Positions 52,905 through 62,961 of a stretch of DNA of 64,000 bases are shown here, in pieces. The stretch spans positions 124,001 to 188,000 of the forward strand of contig JAIQGG010000003.1 in the NCBI GenBank assembly GCA_020072785.1, read 5' to 3'. This DNA comes from Terriglobia bacterium (GTDB lineage Bacteria; Acidobacteriota; Terriglobia; Acidiferrales; UBA7541). The notes beneath the pieces are model-generated. The model searched no databases. It saw only the letters and a program-made list of their open reading frames with translations, and had not been told where the DNA came from. Each line of letters starts with the position of its first letter. Within the stretch, counting starts at the first letter, position 1. The position numbers and the translations under genes were made by a program.

Positions 52905-53224
52905 CGTTTGGTGACCCGCGCCATCCCCTGGCGAAGGCCGGTCGCCGCATCCCCGCCGGCTCTTCCTCCCTGTCTGCAGTGTCTTCGGCGGGAAAGTCGT
53001 AGCACGAACCCGCTTTTTGAGGCGCCTATCATTGCGCACTTGTGCTGCAGAGGAAAGCCGAAAAAAACAGAATTTCGAGGGTGGCCCGGAGCTTCCGCAG
53101 GCCGCGGCAAAGGCTTCTCGGATGCTCCTCAAACGTGATACAAGCTCTTGGCACCCCGGGTGCGGGGAAATGCAGGCTTGTGCCGGACCCCGGCGGGCGC
53201 TGCGCAGGTTGCGCGATTTTTGCG
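52905..53224. other. Divergent region between an MFS gene and the ligase fusion
   Basis: 320 bases; an open frame continuing from the ligase gene crosses it but has no homology and no ribosome site until 53225. I see no clear promoter or repeat. Confidence 0.4.
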
Positions 53225-55981
53225 ATGCTGGAACACGGGAACAATTTCTTCGATCGTTTCGCGGCCACGGCCGAGCGCTACGGCGGCAACGTCGCCGTGG
53301 AATTGCAGCACCGCGACACCGTGGAGACGGCCACTTATGCGGAACTGCGCAGGCAGGCCGAAGCGGCCGCGGGCTTCCTGACCGCCCGGGGCATCCGCAC
53401 CGGCGAGGCCTGCGCCATCCTCGCCGACAACGACATCGCCTGGTGCGCCGTGTATCTGGGCGCGTTGCGCGTGGGCGCGCTGGCCGTTCCCTTGGACACC
53501 CATTACTCGCCGCAGCAGATCGCCACACTGCTGCGCGACAGCGGCGCGAAGATGCTCTTCACCACCTCGCGCTTCGTCGCCGATGTCGAAGAGGCGCGCC
53601 GCCTGAGCGGCTCTCCTGCGGAGATCGTGCTCCTGCGCGGCCGGCATGAGGATTTGCCGAGCTTCGACGCGTTGCAGAAGAAGGAGTGGCCCGCGCTCCC
53701 CGCCGGCAGCGTCACGCGCGAAGATCCCGCCGTCATCCTCTATACCTCGGGGACCACCAGCGATCCCAAGGGCGTGGTCCTGACGCACGGCAATTTGCTG
53801 GCCGAGGCCGACGCCGTCTTCCGTACGGTGCAGATCGGCGCAGAAGACTCCGTCCTCGGCGTCATGCCGCTCTATCATGCGCTGGCGCAGATGGCCAATC
53901 TCCTGCTCCCCTTCGTGGTTGGCGCGCGGGTCATCTTCCTCGAGGAAATCAGCTCCTCCGAGCTGCTGAAGGCACTGCGCCAGCACCGCCCCACGGTGTT
54001 CTGCTGCGTGCCGCAGTTCTTCTATCTCATCCATCAGCGCGTGTTCGCCAGGGCCGCCGAAAGCGGCTGGACCCGGCGGACGCTTTTCCGCCTGCTGCTG
54101 CGCGCGAACGCCGCCTCGCGCCGCCTGCTGCGCCTGAATCTCGGCCCGCTGCTTTTTTCCGCCGTCCATGACGTCCTCGGACGCGAAATGCGTTTTCTGG
54201 TGACCGGCGGAGCGCGCTTCGACCCTGTCGTGGGGCGGGATTTCTACCGCCTCGGCTTCGATCTTCTCGAAGCCTACGGCTTGACGGAATCTTCCGGCGC
54301 AGCCACCTTGACACGCCCGGGCGAAGGCGGGCTGGGATTCGTGGGCCGCCCGCTGCCCGGCGTGGAAGTGAAGATCCTGCCGGCGGGGATGGGCACGGAG
54401 AACGGCGAGGCGCGCGGCGAGATTGCCATCCGCGGGCCCATCGTCATGCAGGGCTATTTCCGCCGGCCCGATGCCACGGCCGCGGTCCTGCAGGACGGCT
54501 GGTTCCTGACGGGCGACCTCGGCTGCCTGGACGCCCGGGGCCGGCTCGCGATCACCGGGCGGAAGAAGGAAGTCATCATTCTCAGCTCCGGAAAAAACAT
54601 TTATCCGGAAGAGATCGAAACGCACTACTTGCAATCGCCGTACATTGCCGAGCTGTGCGTGCTCGGCCTGGCGGCGCCGGACGAGCCCGCGGCGGAGCGC
54701 CTGCACGCCGTGGTCGTGCCCAATCTGGAAGTCCTGCGCGAGCGCAAGATCGTCAACATCAAGGAAGCGCTGCGCTTCGACATCGAAAACCTCTCCGTCC
54801 ACCTGCCCGCGCACAAGCGCATCCTCAGCTACGAGATCCGCATGGAGCCGCTGCCGCGCACCACCACTCGCAAGCTCAAGCGCTACGAAATCGAGCGCCA
54901 GGTGCGCAGCCGCGCGCCGGAAACGGAAAAGCAAGCCGCCGCCGCGCCGGACGCCGCCTGGGCCGCCGATCCGGACCTCGCCCGCGCTCTCGACCTGGTT
55001 CGCGAAGCCGCGCACGACAAGTCCGCCGTGCATCCCGGCGCCAACCTGGAGCTGGACCTCGGCCTCGATTCCATCGAGCGCATCGAGCTGCTGGCCAACC
55101 TCGAACAGCTCTTCGGATCCGCCATGCCCGCCGAAGCCGCGGAAGCCGCCTACACCGTGCGCCAGCTCGTCGAGGCCGTGCGCGCGCAAGCCGGTGCGCC
55201 GGCGCCCGGACGCCGCGTCAATGCCTGGAGCAAGCTGCTTGCGGATCTACCGGAGGAAGAGCCGCTTCTCCGCGATCTTTTAAAGCCGCACCACATCCTG
55301 ACGTTCGCGTGCTTCGTGGCGCTGAAGCTGGCGCGCCTCGCCGCCCGCTTCTTCCTGGGATTCCGCGTGCGCGGCGTCGAGCATCTCCCGAAAGACGGCG
55401 CGTTCCTCCTCTGCCCCAATCATCAGAGCTACCTGGACGCATTTCTCCTGGTCAGCGCGCTGCCCTGGCCCATGTTCCGCAGGCTGTTTTTCGTGGGTGC
55501 GAGCGAATATTTCGCCACCCCGCTGCGCGCCAGGGCCGCGCGCGCGCTGCACGTCGCTCCCGTGGATCCCGATACGCACCTGCTGCAGGCCCTGCAAGCC
55601 GGAGTCTTCGGCCTGCGCCACGGCAGGATTCTGGTGCTGTTTCCGGAAGGGGAGCGCTCGATCGACGGCGAGATCAAGAAGTTCCGCAAGGGCGCGGCGA
55701 TTCTCGCCGCGCACACGCAAGTGCCGGTGGTTCCGGCGGCGTTCGAAGGGCTCTTTGCGGTGTGGCCGCGGAATCGCGCGCTGTGCTGGCGCGCCTTTCT
55801 TCCCTGGAAACACACGCGGGTGACGCTACGCTTCGGCCCCGTCATTCCGGCCGCGCCGGCCCCGGGCGCGGAGGCCACGCAGGCGCAGAGCGAAGCCCTT
55901 TACGCCGCGTTCGCGGAGCATTTGCGCGGAAATGTCGTGGATCTGCAGACGTCCTTGCCCGCCAAATCCGCCTCGGCCTGA
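53225..55981 (+). CDS. Fusion of acyl-activating (AMP) ligase, acyl carrier domain and PlsC-type acyltransferase
   Basis: A 918-residue protein with three modules. Residues 1-560 are an ANL-family ligase: YTSGTTSDPKGVVLTHGN (173-190), TGGARFDPVV, DLLEAYGLTESSG, GWFLTGDLGCLDARGRLAIT and KKEVIILSSGKNIYPEEIE. Residues 575-655 are a carrier domain with the phosphopantetheine serine Ser616 (DLGLDSIERIELL). Residues 690-910 are a glycerolipid-type acyltransferase with LCPNHQSYLDAFLLV (His733, Asp738) and LVLFPEGERSIDGEIKKF (806-809 FPEG). Together they could activate a fatty acid, hold it as thioester and pass it to a glycerol- or amino-lipid. ATG 53225 fits the ligase start; the ribosome site is weak. 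Confidence 0.93.
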   Translation: MLEHGNNFFDRFAATAERYGGNVAVELQHRDTVETATYAELRRQAEAAAGFLTARGIRTGEACAILADNDIAWCAVYLGALRVGALAVPLDTHYSPQQIATLLRDSGAKMLFTTSRFVADVEEARRLSGSPAEIVLLRGRHEDLPSFDALQKKEWPALPAGSVTREDPAVILYTSGTTSDPKGVVLTHGNLLAEADAVFRTVQIGAEDSVLGVMPLYHALAQMANLLLPFVVGARVIFLEEISSSELLKALRQHRPTVFCCVPQFFYLIHQRVFARAAESGWTRRTLFRLLLRANAASRRLLRLNLGPLLFSAVHDVLGREMRFLVTGGARFDPVVGRDFYRLGFDLLEAYGLTESSGAATLTRPGEGGLGFVGRPLPGVEVKILPAGMGTENGEARGEIAIRGPIVMQGYFRRPDATAAVLQDGWFLTGDLGCLDARGRLAITGRKKEVIILSSGKNIYPEEIETHYLQSPYIAELCVLGLAAPDEPAAERLHAVVVPNLEVLRERKIVNIKEALRFDIENLSVHLPAHKRILSYEIRMEPLPRTTTRKLKRYEIERQVRSRAPETEKQAAAAPDAAWAADPDLARALDLVREAAHDKSAVHPGANLELDLGLDSIERIELLANLEQLFGSAMPAEAAEAAYTVRQLVEAVRAQAGAPAPGRRVNAWSKLLADLPEEEPLLRDLLKPHHILTFACFVALKLARLAARFFLGFRVRGVEHLPKDGAFLLCPNHQSYLDAFLLVSALPWPMFRRLFFVGASEYFATPLRARAARALHVAPVDPDTHLLQALQAGVFGLRHGRILVLFPEGERSIDGEIKKFRKGAAILAAHTQVPVVPAAFEGLFAVWPRNRALCWRAFLPWKHTRVTLRFGPVIPAAPAPGAEATQAQSEALYAAFAEHLRGNVVDLQTSLPAKSASA

Positions 55982-56284: not shown

Positions 56285-56929
56285 ATGGTTGTTTGGTGCT
56301 TCTGTCAACTCCTGGCGCGGCAGAGGCGAGCCGCAATTTTTTTGCTGGCGCTGGCCGTGGCTCTGCTGGCGATTGGCGCGGCGCCGGCCTTCGCCAGTGC
56401 GAACACCGCGGAGGCCAGCCTTCCCGTCGTCTCGCCCAACGATAACCGCTTGCCGGGAGGCGTCCTCAAGGACGGCGCGCTGACGATCAAGCTGGAACTG
56501 CGCGAGACGCGCTGGTATCCGGACAAGGACGGCGGACCGAGCGTGGTCGTGATGACCTTCGGCGAGGAAGGGCGCGCGCCGCAGATTCCCGGGCCGATGA
56601 TCCGCGTGCCGGAGGGCACGGAGATTCACGCCAGCGTGCGCAACCTGCTGGCCGTCAACGCCACGGTGCACGGCCTGCACGCCCGCCCCGGCGAGGCCAA
56701 CGATTCCTTCGAGATTGCGCCCGGGCAGGTGCGCGAGGCGCGCTTCCAGGCAGGTGCGCCGGGAACGTATTTCTACTCGGCGAGGACGACGAAGGAAGAA
56801 GACCCCACGCCGGCGGAGACACCGCTTTCGGGCGCCTTCATCGTGGACCGGCGGGACAGGCGCCGAACGACCGGGTGTTCGTCATCGGCCTGTGGTACGA
56901 GGAGCCTGACAAAGAATCGCTCACCGTGA
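56285..56929 (+). pseudogene. Multicopper oxidase, N-terminal fragment (frameshifted)
   Basis: First half of a secreted multicopper oxidase. ATG 56285 follows CAGAGGTGAG. Signal peptide: ARQRRAAIFLLALAVALLAI, cleaved near AFASA. A cupredoxin domain follows (ALTIKLELRETRWYPD, IPGPMIRVPEGTEIHASVRN, VHGLHARPGEANDSFEIAPG) but without a full set of copper ligands; where a second His pair could stand it reads GTYFYSARTT. After GAFIVD the frame goes wrong at about 56845-56852 and runs into nonsense (RRDRRRTTG) and a stop. Adding one base there restores DPAGQAPNDRVFVIGLWYEE, which continues as the next entry. It is either a true loss or a sequencing/assembly error. Confidence 0.8.
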
Positions 56930-58200
56930 ACGGCAAATCGTATCCCTACACCGAACGGCTCACCTACACGGTTGGAGAGGAAACGCACTGGCGCTGGATC
57001 AATCCTTCTGTGTCGGACCACGCCATGCACTTGCACGGCTTCTACTTCACCGTAAACAGCGCGGGCACCGCGGAACGCGACACCATCTACAGCCCGGAGC
57101 AGCGCCGGCGGGTGGTGACCGAGCACATGGATTCCGGCGGCACGATGACCGCAACATGGGTGCCGCAGCAAATCGGCAATTGGGTCTTTCACTGCCATAT
57201 GACAGCGCACATGGGCGTAACGGCCCGGCTGGGACACGAGGAACACGCGAAACACGAAGAAGCGGCCTATGACGATCCAGCGGACCCTGCGGATACTGCT
57301 GGTTTCGGCGGGCTGGTCGTAAAAATAACGATCTTACCCAAGGGAGGCAAGGAGCCGGCGGCAATTGCCGCTGCAGCAAATGCGCGCAAGATTCGTCTCC
57401 TCGTAAAGGAACGCCCGGCAACAGAGCAGTCTCTCGCCGGATACGCATTTCAGATTCAGGAAGGGAACGCGGAACCCGCGGGCAGGCTGACCGTGCCGGG
57501 GCCGCCGCTGGTGCTCACGCGCGGCCAGCCGGTGGAGATCACGGTCGTCAACCAGCTCCGCAAGCCCACGTCCATCCACTGGCATGGAATCGAGCTGGAA
57601 AGCTATTACGACGGTCTGGCGGGATTCGGCGGAATCGGAACGCAGATTTCCCCGCCCGTGCCGCCGGGCGGAACGTTCACGGCGCGGATGGCCCCGCCTC
57701 GCGCCGGCACTTTCATCTATCACACCCACTGGCACGATTTTGATCAACTGACCGGCGGACTCTACGGGCCGTTGATTGTGGTCGAGCCGGGGGGAAAATT
57801 CGATCCCGAAACGGACAAGATTTTCGTCATGTCCCGCGCAAGTCTGACCGAAGAAGGCCGGGCCTTGCTCGTGAACGGAAAAGAGCAGCCGCGACCGGTG
57901 ACGCTGCACAAGGGCCGCAAATACCGCTTCCGGCTGATCAACATCACTCCCAATGATGCGGATGGTGTGTTCACGCTGAAGAGCGGCGAAACGATTCTGC
58001 AGTGGCGTCTGGTCGCCAAGGACGGGCAGGATGTCCCGGCGGCGCAAGCGGTCCTGAAAGAGGCCAAGCAGCTTATTACCGTGGGCGAAACCTACGATTT
58101 CGAGTTTCAGCCGGAAACGGCGGGCGATTTTCGTCTCGAAGCGTCTGCTCCGTTTGGCAAACGCTGGGTCATCGCCCCAATCCTTGTGAGCGAGGAATAG
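56875..58200 (+). pseudogene. Multicopper oxidase, C-terminal part with permuted copper motifs
   Basis: Continuation of the gene above in another frame; taken together about 638 residues. Numbering from the GTG at 56875, the copper-binding pairs come in unusual order. First come motifs that normally end such proteins: His49, His52 and His54 in SDHAMHLHGFYF, then HCH 106-108 and His112 in WVFHCHMTAHMG. After a linker come motifs that normally begin them: HWH 235-237 (TSIHWHGIE) and HTHWH 283-287 (FIYHTHWHDFDQL). A final ligand-free cupredoxin domain ends IAPILVSEE. All four HxH pairs are kept, so a type 1 site and a trinuclear site could form. The usual axial Met after His112 is not seen. Confidence 0.82.
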
Positions 58201-58324: not shown

Positions 58325-60256
58325 TCAGCCGCGCGCTGCGAGGAGCTCACCCACGGCGCGGTGGGCCTGGTCGATGGCGGCGTCGGTGTACGCTTCCGCG
58401 CCGGCATCGGAATTGGCGATGGCGATGCTTCCAAAGCGCTGCCGGCCGATGACCCACGGCTTCTCTTCTTCCTTCCAGTCCGGATCAAAGAGCGAGCTCT
58501 GCTCGTAGGCGTAGCCGTGCGCCCAGCGGTTTACGGTGATGCCCTGGATGTCGCGCGCCGGATCGAAGCCTGCCGAACCGAGCATGCGCCCCAGTTGGTC
58601 GCGAATCTTGCGTTCGAACATCGCGAATGGCGTCTGCATCAGCTCGTAGCGCCCCGCGCGGTATTGGTTGCGCATGGGCAGCCCTGGCGCGCAGGGCGTA
58701 CGGAGCATGAAGAGCACCATGGGCTCTTCGGGCTGGCTCGGAAAATGGTATTCGCCGAGGCTGACGGGAAAATCGAGAGCGGTGTAGGTATGGTAGCCGC
58801 CTGGCGCGACGATGTGCCGCACGCCCAGCTTGTGAAACGACGCCCAGTTGGCCAGCGCCACGTGCGTGTACACCAGCGGCGCCTTCACGAGATAGGCCAG
58901 CGCCTCCTTCTGCTTCTCCGGCAGCTCCGGGCACAAATACGGGATCATGCCGTTGTAACATGCCAGGACACAGTGTTTGGCTTGCACGCTGTACAGCTTC
59001 TTGTTGCGCACGTAAACGATCTCCACGGTCTTCCCTGCAACGCTTCCGGCATCCGCGTGGCGGGCCTCCACCACTGTGCTGTTCAGCCGCATGCGCACGG
59101 AAGAAGCGGCATTGTCGAGGCGGCTGTAATCGGCGCGTGAGGTAACCACATCGTCCATGGTGTGCCCCGGCACGGCCGCGGGAAGGAGAGCGCGCACCAG
59201 CAGCCGCGCGATCGCGGCGTTGCCATCCGGAAAATGGAAAATATACGGCTCTTCTTCGTGCTTCTCCTGCCCCGCGATGCCCAGGCCATCGAACCCGGCG
59301 TAGGAGAACGATCCGTAATCGTCCCCGGCTTCATAGCAGTCCAGCGCGGAAACGGCGTCAATGCCCACGCAGAAGAGATCGTGCGGGAAGGTCTGAAAAA
59401 ACTTCAGCGCTTCCGGATGGACCTTGCAATACTGCGTGAGATAGTCCGCGTAGCTGATCCGGGCGAGCTTCGCGCGCTTCTCTTCCCGCGACAGCCCCAG
59501 CAGATAGTCCACCTTTTCCATATAGGCACGGGCGATATCGCGCCGCGCCACATCGGAGAGCGGCGCCTTGGCCAGAAATTCGCGCCACGGCGTGCTGTTC
59601 ATGCCTGTCACCAGGCGGTCCGCTCCGAACGTTTCCCGGTCGAAAAACGCGGCCGTGCCCAGTTTCGCGTAGAGCTTCTGGTCGTAAGCCTTGTAGAAGC
59701 GCCGGGTTTCGACGCCCAGCTCGGCCAGCAGGGCCTTGGCCACTTTGCTGTATTTCCCGGGACTCTCGAGGGACTGCGTCCCGCCGTAGCTCAGCAGCGT
59801 CCGGCCGCCAGCGCGAAATTCGTTGCGCTTGGCGTGGCCCCCAAAGTCGTCGTGATTATCCAGAATGAGAACGCGCGCATCCGTGCCGGCGTTCTGGCGA
59901 TAGAAGTACGCCGCGGCCAACCCGCTGATGCCCCCGCCGACCACTGCCAGGTCGTAGGCTTTGCCCGTCGCCGCGGGCGCGCCCCAGGCGTTCCACCGTT
60001 CGCCGTCGCGCAGGCGGTGTGCGTAGGTGAACGTGCCGTCGTGGTTGCCACGCATCCCGGTCAGCGCCGGGGGGTAGTAACCCGGCGCCGTCTCCGGCGC
60101 GGCTTCGTCCAAGGTCATGGCCCCGAGCAACGCCTCGCCGGCCAGCGAACCGCCCAGCAGCGACGCGCCGGCGCCAACGGCGACACCGTTCAGGAAATCG
60201 CGCCGCGTGATCGCGCGGTCCATCCCCAGCTCCCGATCCTTCGATTCCTTGCTCAT
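58325..60256 (-). CDS. Tat-exported FAD-dependent oxidoreductase, spermidine dehydrogenase-like
   Basis: Periplasmic flavoprotein of 643 residues in the NAD(P)/FAD amine-oxidase-like group; some relatives are annotated spermidine dehydrogenase, but the substrate here is unknown. ATG 60254-60256 follows AGGGGGG. A twin-arginine signal is clear: [20 protein letters not shown]. The dinucleotide site is [20 protein letters not shown] with [14 protein letters not shown] as the second FAD strand. Further segments are [40 protein letters not shown] and the C-terminal FAD contact [17 protein letters not shown]. Folded export with bound FAD fits the Tat signal. It is convergent with the multicopper oxidase. 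Confidence 0.9.
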
Positions 60257-60351
60257 GGCAACCCCCCTGACTGACACAACCGCCACGAATTATAGCTTTC
60301 GGCAGGGTGGATGGAAAAAGTACAGCGCACTCCGCTCGCGAAACGGTAGGA

Positions 60352-62961
<2,610 letters not shown>

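What the first reader, a model, noticed from the sequence alone, without database searches (positions are those of the whole stretch)
56285..58200. Multicopper oxidase with copper motifs in permuted order
Seen: the C-terminal-type pair (HxxHxHG, HCHxxxH) precedes the N-terminal-type pair (HWHG, HTHWH), and ligand-free cupredoxin domains lie at both ends. Known: three-domain oxidases have the reverse order and build the trinuclear site between first and last domains. Inference: here the site would form between adjacent central domains, as in a circular permutation or a fusion of the end of one oxidase to the start of another.
Basis: partly seen in the sequence, partly recalled or inferred. Interest (0 to 1): 0.6.

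Follow-up and report, generated by a model that had tools for sequence, protein, structure and literature searches.

The report
Four-domain copper oxidase, swapped copper order
A secreted bacterial copper enzyme that probably reduces oxygen to water appears to have arisen by doubling a small two-domain oxidase and losing copper sites from both ends, so its oxygen-reducing site sits between the two middle domains; the layout is real and shared by many soil bacteria, but was already known from larger six-domain relatives.

Summary
The gene (56285-58200) is split by a one-base frame offset, but over 55 unbroken homologues carry the same order. Domain 1 is a ligand-free Cu-oxidase_3 domain. Domain 2 has the C-terminal-type motifs (HAMHLHG, HCHxxxH), domain 3 the N-terminal-type motifs (HWHG, HTH), and domain 4 is ligand-free. 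The two halves are diverged copies of one two-domain unit (profile comparison E 3e-22), so this is tandem duplication with complementary loss of copper ligands rather than circular permutation. All eight trinuclear histidines and the type-1 Cys and His are near-invariant. A confident model of the nearest homologue (pLDDT 89, pTM 0.89) places domains 2 and 3 like inter-repeat pairs of ceruloplasmin and factor V, where such a site would form. The family occurs in 89 of 298 sampled Gemmatimonadota genomes and sporadically in Acidobacteriota. The order is not unprecedented: six-domain algal Fox1 and bacterial MnxG-type oxidases are reported to have their trinuclear site between domains 2 and 3 (PMC3600357). 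The unusual part is a four-domain version, outside that paper's two-, three- and six-domain scheme, with a 17-40-residue His/Asp/Met-rich insertion before the type-1 axial ligand. The window copy itself is frame-broken.

The parts
56285..56404 (+). N-terminal region with hydrophobic export (Sec-type) signal
   Evidence: Sequence; hydrophobic N-terminal stretch in 45 of 58 homologues by a simple count
56438..56843 (+). Domain 1: degenerate Cu-oxidase_3 cupredoxin domain without copper ligands (HGLHAR 56669-56686, YFYSART 56768-56788)
   Evidence: Pfam PF07732 E 2e-7; ligand positions degenerate in the family
56840..56880 (+). Zone of the frame offset that splits the gene in this assembly; homologues are unbroken here
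   Evidence: dN/dS 0.24 before and 0.17 after the break
56863..57342 (+). Domain 2: Cu-oxidase_2 type, with type-1 copper (H, C, H) and half of the trinuclear site (HxH, HCH)
   Evidence: Pfam PF07731 E 4e-20; ligands near-invariant in 57-58 homologues
57211..57303 (+). His/Asp-rich insertion (31 residues in the nearest homologue) between the last type-1 His and the axial position
   Evidence: 17-40 residues, median 27, in 57 homologues against 4 in the classical motif
57304..57306 (+). Axial type-1 position: Phe here and in the nearest homologue, Met in 56 of 57 aligned homologues
   Evidence: and sequence
57379..57795 (+). Domain 3: Cu-oxidase_3 type with the other half of the trinuclear site (HWHG, HTH) and the invariant Asp 11 residues after the first His of HWHG
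   Evidence: Pfam PF07732 E 4e-21; invariance
57799..58197 (+). Domain 4: ligand-free cupredoxin domain, homologous to domain 2
   Evidence: Profile comparison domain 2 against domain 4 E 2e-10; weak PF00394 match

Best explanation
The gene encodes (or recently encoded) a secreted four-domain multicopper oxidase, built by tandem duplication of a type-B two-domain oxidase (type-1 copper in the second domain) followed by complementary loss: copy 1 lost its N-type ligands and copy 2 lost its C-type ligands and type-1 copper. One type-1 copper in domain 2 takes electrons one at a time from a reductant. They pass through the His-Cys-His bridge to a single trinuclear cluster at the domain 2/domain 3 interface, where O2 is reduced to water. 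Domains 1 and 4 are structural. The sequence, repeat and conservation steps are shown; the cluster geometry is predicted; the copper chemistry and activity are inferred from family knowledge. The substrate is not known. I favour a metal ion (Cu, Fe or Mn; about 0.5) over phenols (about 0.4) because of the His/Asp/Met-rich insertion next to the type-1 site. The window copy is frame-broken, so it is either a recent pseudogene or a sequencing error.
For: Same order and ligands in 57-58 unbroken homologues. Internal repeat: half 1 against half 2 E 3e-22, collinear over 246 columns; domain 1 against 3 E 9e-13; domain 2 against 4 E 2e-10. Confident model of the nearest homologue (pLDDT 89.4, pTM 0.89). 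Four-domain match to factor V/VIII, ceruloplasmin and MnxG 9bxa (TM about 0.6), and 499 residues on factor V at 3.9 A. Domains 2-3 alone superpose as a pair on factor V residues 179-508 (Z 18.9, 263 residues, 3.6 A) and on ceruloplasmin residues 555-884 (252 residues, 2.9 A), whereas in the two-domain oxidases listed only one domain aligns. The Asp at the CueO D112 position is invariant. dN/dS is 0.17-0.24 against the nearest homologue. Precedent for a 2/3 site: PMC3600357.
Against: No coordinates could be measured, so the distance between the histidine pairs is inferred from superposition. Ceruloplasmin and factor V carry no trinuclear copper at the interfaces matched; equivalence with the copper-bearing 6/1 interface is by pseudo-threefold symmetry. 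Loss of domains 5-6 from a six-domain ancestor is not excluded. The window copy is frame-broken, so this genome may make no enzyme.
Confidence: 0.7

Rival explanations
1. [quoted passage not shown] Catalysis would be the same; only the origin differs.
For: The same site placement is reported for bacterial and algal six-domain oxidases (PMC3600357); MnxG 9bxa is among the best fold matches.
Against: In the members checked no fifth and sixth cupredoxin domain follows domain 4; no match to the four-domain profile at the thresholds used in the Pseudomonadota or Planctomycetota samples, though those searches had no positive control. No MnxG sequence could be fetched for a direct tree.
Confidence: 0.25
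2. True circular permutation of a three-domain laccase, or a fusion of the end of one oxidase to the start of another.
For: The motif order alone (C-type before N-type).
Against: Domain 1 is a degenerate copy of domain 3 and domain 4 of domain 2 in one collinear repeat; a permuted three-domain protein would have three domains, not two complete repeats.
Confidence: 0.05
3. Assembly or chimera artefact: two neighbouring oxidase genes joined in one assembly.
For: The window frame is broken and the genome is a multi-contig assembly.
Against: Unbroken homologues with the same order from many independent assemblies, including single-contig genomes and a plasmid of the named species Gemmatirosa kalamazoonensis.
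Confidence: 0.01
4. The chain does not make an intramolecular site; chains oligomerise and the cluster forms between chains, as in two-domain oxidases.
For: Two-domain relatives form their trinuclear site between chains of a trimer (established knowledge of the family).
Against: The predicted domain 2-3 arrangement within one chain already matches the inter-repeat interface, and the linker is only about 12-17 residues.
Confidence: 0.1

Closest known systems
Six-domain oxidases with a domain 2/3 trinuclear site (bacterial MnxG, algal Fox1)
   Same: [quoted passage not shown] MnxG (9bxa) is a fold match
   Different: Four domains (about 620 residues) instead of six (sequences over 800 residues in that paper); no domains 5-6; no conserved gene neighbours seen
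Ceruloplasmin, hephaestin, coagulation factors V and VIII
   Same: Tandem two-domain repeats; four-domain and domain 2-3 superposition
   Different: Six such domains; trinuclear site between domains 1 and 6 in ceruloplasmin (PMC3600357)
Type-B two-domain oxidases (small laccases)
   Same: Each half is one such unit; type-1 copper in the second domain; half and single-domain matches
   Different: Two units in one chain, each having lost half of its copper ligands; one trinuclear site rather than three per trimer
Three-domain laccases, CueO, CopA
   Same: Same eight-His trinuclear set and Cys-His type-1 motif; Asp at the CueO D112 position
   Different: Reverse motif order and three domains; scores far below the NCBIfam cut-offs for CopA, CueO and laccase

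Membership tests
Multicopper oxidase superfamily (blue oxidases) | Eight His in four HxH motifs plus the HCHxxxH type-1/type-3 motif | tested here: met
   At least 57 of 58 homologues at each of the eight histidines; Pfam PF07731 and PF07732 in 58 of 58
Multicopper oxidase superfamily (blue oxidases) | Binds four coppers and reduces O2 to water | not testable with these tools
   Needs purified protein
Three-domain laccase / CueO / CopA | Three cupredoxin domains, N-type motifs first and C-type motifs last | tested here: not met
   Four domains and the reverse order; scores far below NCBIfam cut-offs
Two-domain oxidase (type B) | Two domains per chain, with both kinds of ligand motif in the chain | tested here: not met
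   Four domains; each half has only one kind of motif
Six-domain MnxG/Fox1 type | Type-1 site in domain 2 and trinuclear ligands in domains 2 and 3 | tested here: met
   Ligand positions by sequence; interface by predicted fold only
Six-domain MnxG/Fox1 type | Six cupredoxin domains | tested here: not met
   The 58 aligned members have four domains, and the long frames checked have no fifth and sixth; L115 carries a further C-terminal extension of about 230 residues that was not classified
Ceruloplasmin type | Trinuclear site between first and last domains | tested here: not met
   First and last domains lack the ligands

The most novel reading that the evidence does not exclude
A four-domain class of multicopper oxidase, not covered by the two-, three- and six-domain classification, that arose by a single duplication of a two-domain oxidase and keeps one active site in an open two-thirds ring. 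It would be a living intermediate in the proposed path from two-domain trimers to six-domain rings.
Probability: 0.5. Interest if true: 0.55.

Novelty: new variant of a known kind. Interest (0 to 1): 0.42.

Why it matters
Models of how two-domain copper oxidases became three- and six-domain enzymes rest on hypothetical intermediates. A widespread four-domain enzyme with complementary loss of copper sites would give a protein to crystallise and assay at that step. It would also show that an oxidase can work with four of the six ring domains. The family is common in Gemmatimonadota, soil bacteria that are little characterised, and has a member in the named species Gemmatirosa kalamazoonensis.

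Tried and rejected
Circular permutation: rejected on the collinear repeat. Assembly artefact: rejected on unbroken homologues. Conserved gene neighbourhood as a clue to the substrate: no neighbour cluster in more than 5 of the loci. Finding MnxG through the solved-structure sequence search, to root the repeats: it did not rank among the 60 rows listed. Six-domain relatives through genome samples of Pseudomonadota and Planctomycetota: nothing at the thresholds used, with no positive control. Long open frames in Gemmatimonadota as hidden six-domain forms: the extra length lies upstream of domain 1. MnxG was not among the rows listed by the second-look structural aligner, which excludes nothing. 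Paper searches for a four-domain oxidase found none; the library is open-access only. Two genome searches failed because a locus id was given as centre and were repeated with a genome handle.

Full report
Observation. The window holds two overlapping open frames that together encode one multicopper oxidase: a 5' frame read from 56285 and a 3' frame 56875-58200. Pfam finds a degenerate Cu-oxidase_3 domain, then Cu-oxidase_2, then a full Cu-oxidase_3 and a weak Cu-oxidase match. The gene is broken by a one-base frame offset between about 56840 and 56880; intact copies exist elsewhere. Both halves evolve under constraint relative to the nearest homologue (dN/dS 0.24 and 0.17), so the break is recent or is a sequencing error. 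At the search thresholds used these are the only Cu-oxidase_2 and Cu-oxidase_3 hits in this genome.

Homologues. The nearest is in G009 (83% identity over the 3' part), with others at 43-47%. A scan of genome contigs gave about 60 further relatives, nearly all with unbroken frames of 600-690 residues. The alignment of 58 (A2) shows the C-type set H239, H242, H244, H296, C297, H298, H302 in 57-58 members, and the N-type set H426, H428, H474, H476 in 57-58. The fifth His of HTHWH is not conserved (35 of 58). The axial residue is Met in 56 of 57, but Phe in L005 and the window. Phe or Leu at this place marks high-potential fungal laccases (own knowledge), so this lineage may have a raised type-1 potential. 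The Asp 11 residues after the first His of HWHG, the position of CueO D112 (own knowledge), is invariant.

Architecture. Profile-profile comparison of half 1 (domains 1-2) with half 2 (domains 3-4) is collinear over 246 columns (E 3e-22). Domain 1 pairs with 3 (E 9e-13) and 2 with 4 (E 2e-10), while the pairs 1-2 and 3-4 are weak; domains 2 and 3, the two that bear copper ligands, also match each other (E 8e-8). The protein is therefore best read as a tandem duplication of a two-domain unit with complementary ligand loss. Between the last type-1 His and the axial residue lies an insertion of 17-40 residues (median 27; classical spacing 4), enriched in His (10.1% against 3.9%), Asp (11.4% against 5.4%) and Met (6.0% against 2.4%).

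Structure. AlphaFold2 on the L005 protein gave pLDDT 89.4 and pTM 0.89. Foldseek's best PDB matches are factor V, factor VIII, ceruloplasmin and the MnxG complex 9bxa, at TM about 0.6 of the model length. The second-look aligner fits each half to two-domain oxidases and nitrite reductases (Z about 24-26) and 499 residues to factor V at 3.9 A. A separate model of domains 2-3 (pLDDT 86.7) fits factor V residues 179-508 as a pair (Z 18.9, 263 residues, 3.6 A) and ceruloplasmin 555-884 (252 residues, 2.9 A); the two-domain oxidases listed align over one domain only. The domain 2/domain 3 contact is thus predicted to be the inter-repeat contact where trinuclear sites sit in this superfamily.

Distribution. 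89 of 298 Gemmatimonadota genomes have the family, often in two to four copies. It is in 6 of 396 Acidobacteriota, 7 of 101 near relatives including the window's own genome and 1 of 95 in the phylum of the Rokubacteria genome. It was not found at the thresholds used in Pseudomonadota, Planctomycetota or Chloroflexota samples, although one Steroidobacter bin has it. These are lower bounds, because only a few candidates per genome were scored in the large samples. The tree groups sequences mostly by phylum, with a few mixed clades. A plasmid of Gemmatirosa kalamazoonensis carries a member. No gene neighbourhood is conserved across the family; in G009 the gene lies next to the same P-type ATPase as in the window, without the FAD oxidoreductase in between.

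Mechanism. By analogy with characterised multicopper oxidases (established knowledge), the type-1 copper of domain 2 would accept single electrons, pass them through the Cys and its two neighbouring His to the trinuclear cluster, and four electrons would reduce O2 to water. The sequence supports every ligand; the geometry is predicted; activity and substrate are inferred. The metal-binding character of the insertion beside the type-1 site is the only substrate clue and is weak.

Comparison with the known. PMC3600357 classifies these proteins as two-, three- or six-domain, and reports that algal ferroxidases and all bacterial six-domain oxidases it analysed have the trinuclear site between domains 2 and 3, with the type-1 site of the bacterial ones in domain 2. 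The motif order is therefore known; the four-domain length is what falls outside that scheme. No paper on a four-domain oxidase of this kind was found in the open-access library, which is not proof of absence.

Verdict. A real, conserved and probably functional family; a new variant of a known kind.

Noticed in passing
58325-60286 (-): FAD/NAD-binding oxidoreductase with a twin-arginine-like N-terminus (Pfam NAD_binding_8, DAO); absent between the oxidase and the ATPase in the near relative G009, so probably an insertion or a loss.
   Followed up: partly
60352-62961 (-): P-type cation-transporting ATPase (E1-E2 ATPase, Cation_ATPase_C) whose position next to the oxidase is conserved in G009 (77% DNA identity).
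   Followed up: partly
53042-55981 (+): AMP-binding enzyme, carrier domain and acyltransferase in one frame (Pfam PF00501, PF00550, PF01553).
   Followed up: no
L115 (G381): A four-domain homologue with an extra C-terminal stretch of roughly 230 residues that was not classified.
   Followed up: no
Gemmatimonadota genomes such as G535, G582, G619, G655: Up to four diverged copies of the family in one genome, suggesting paralogues with different substrates.
   Followed up: no
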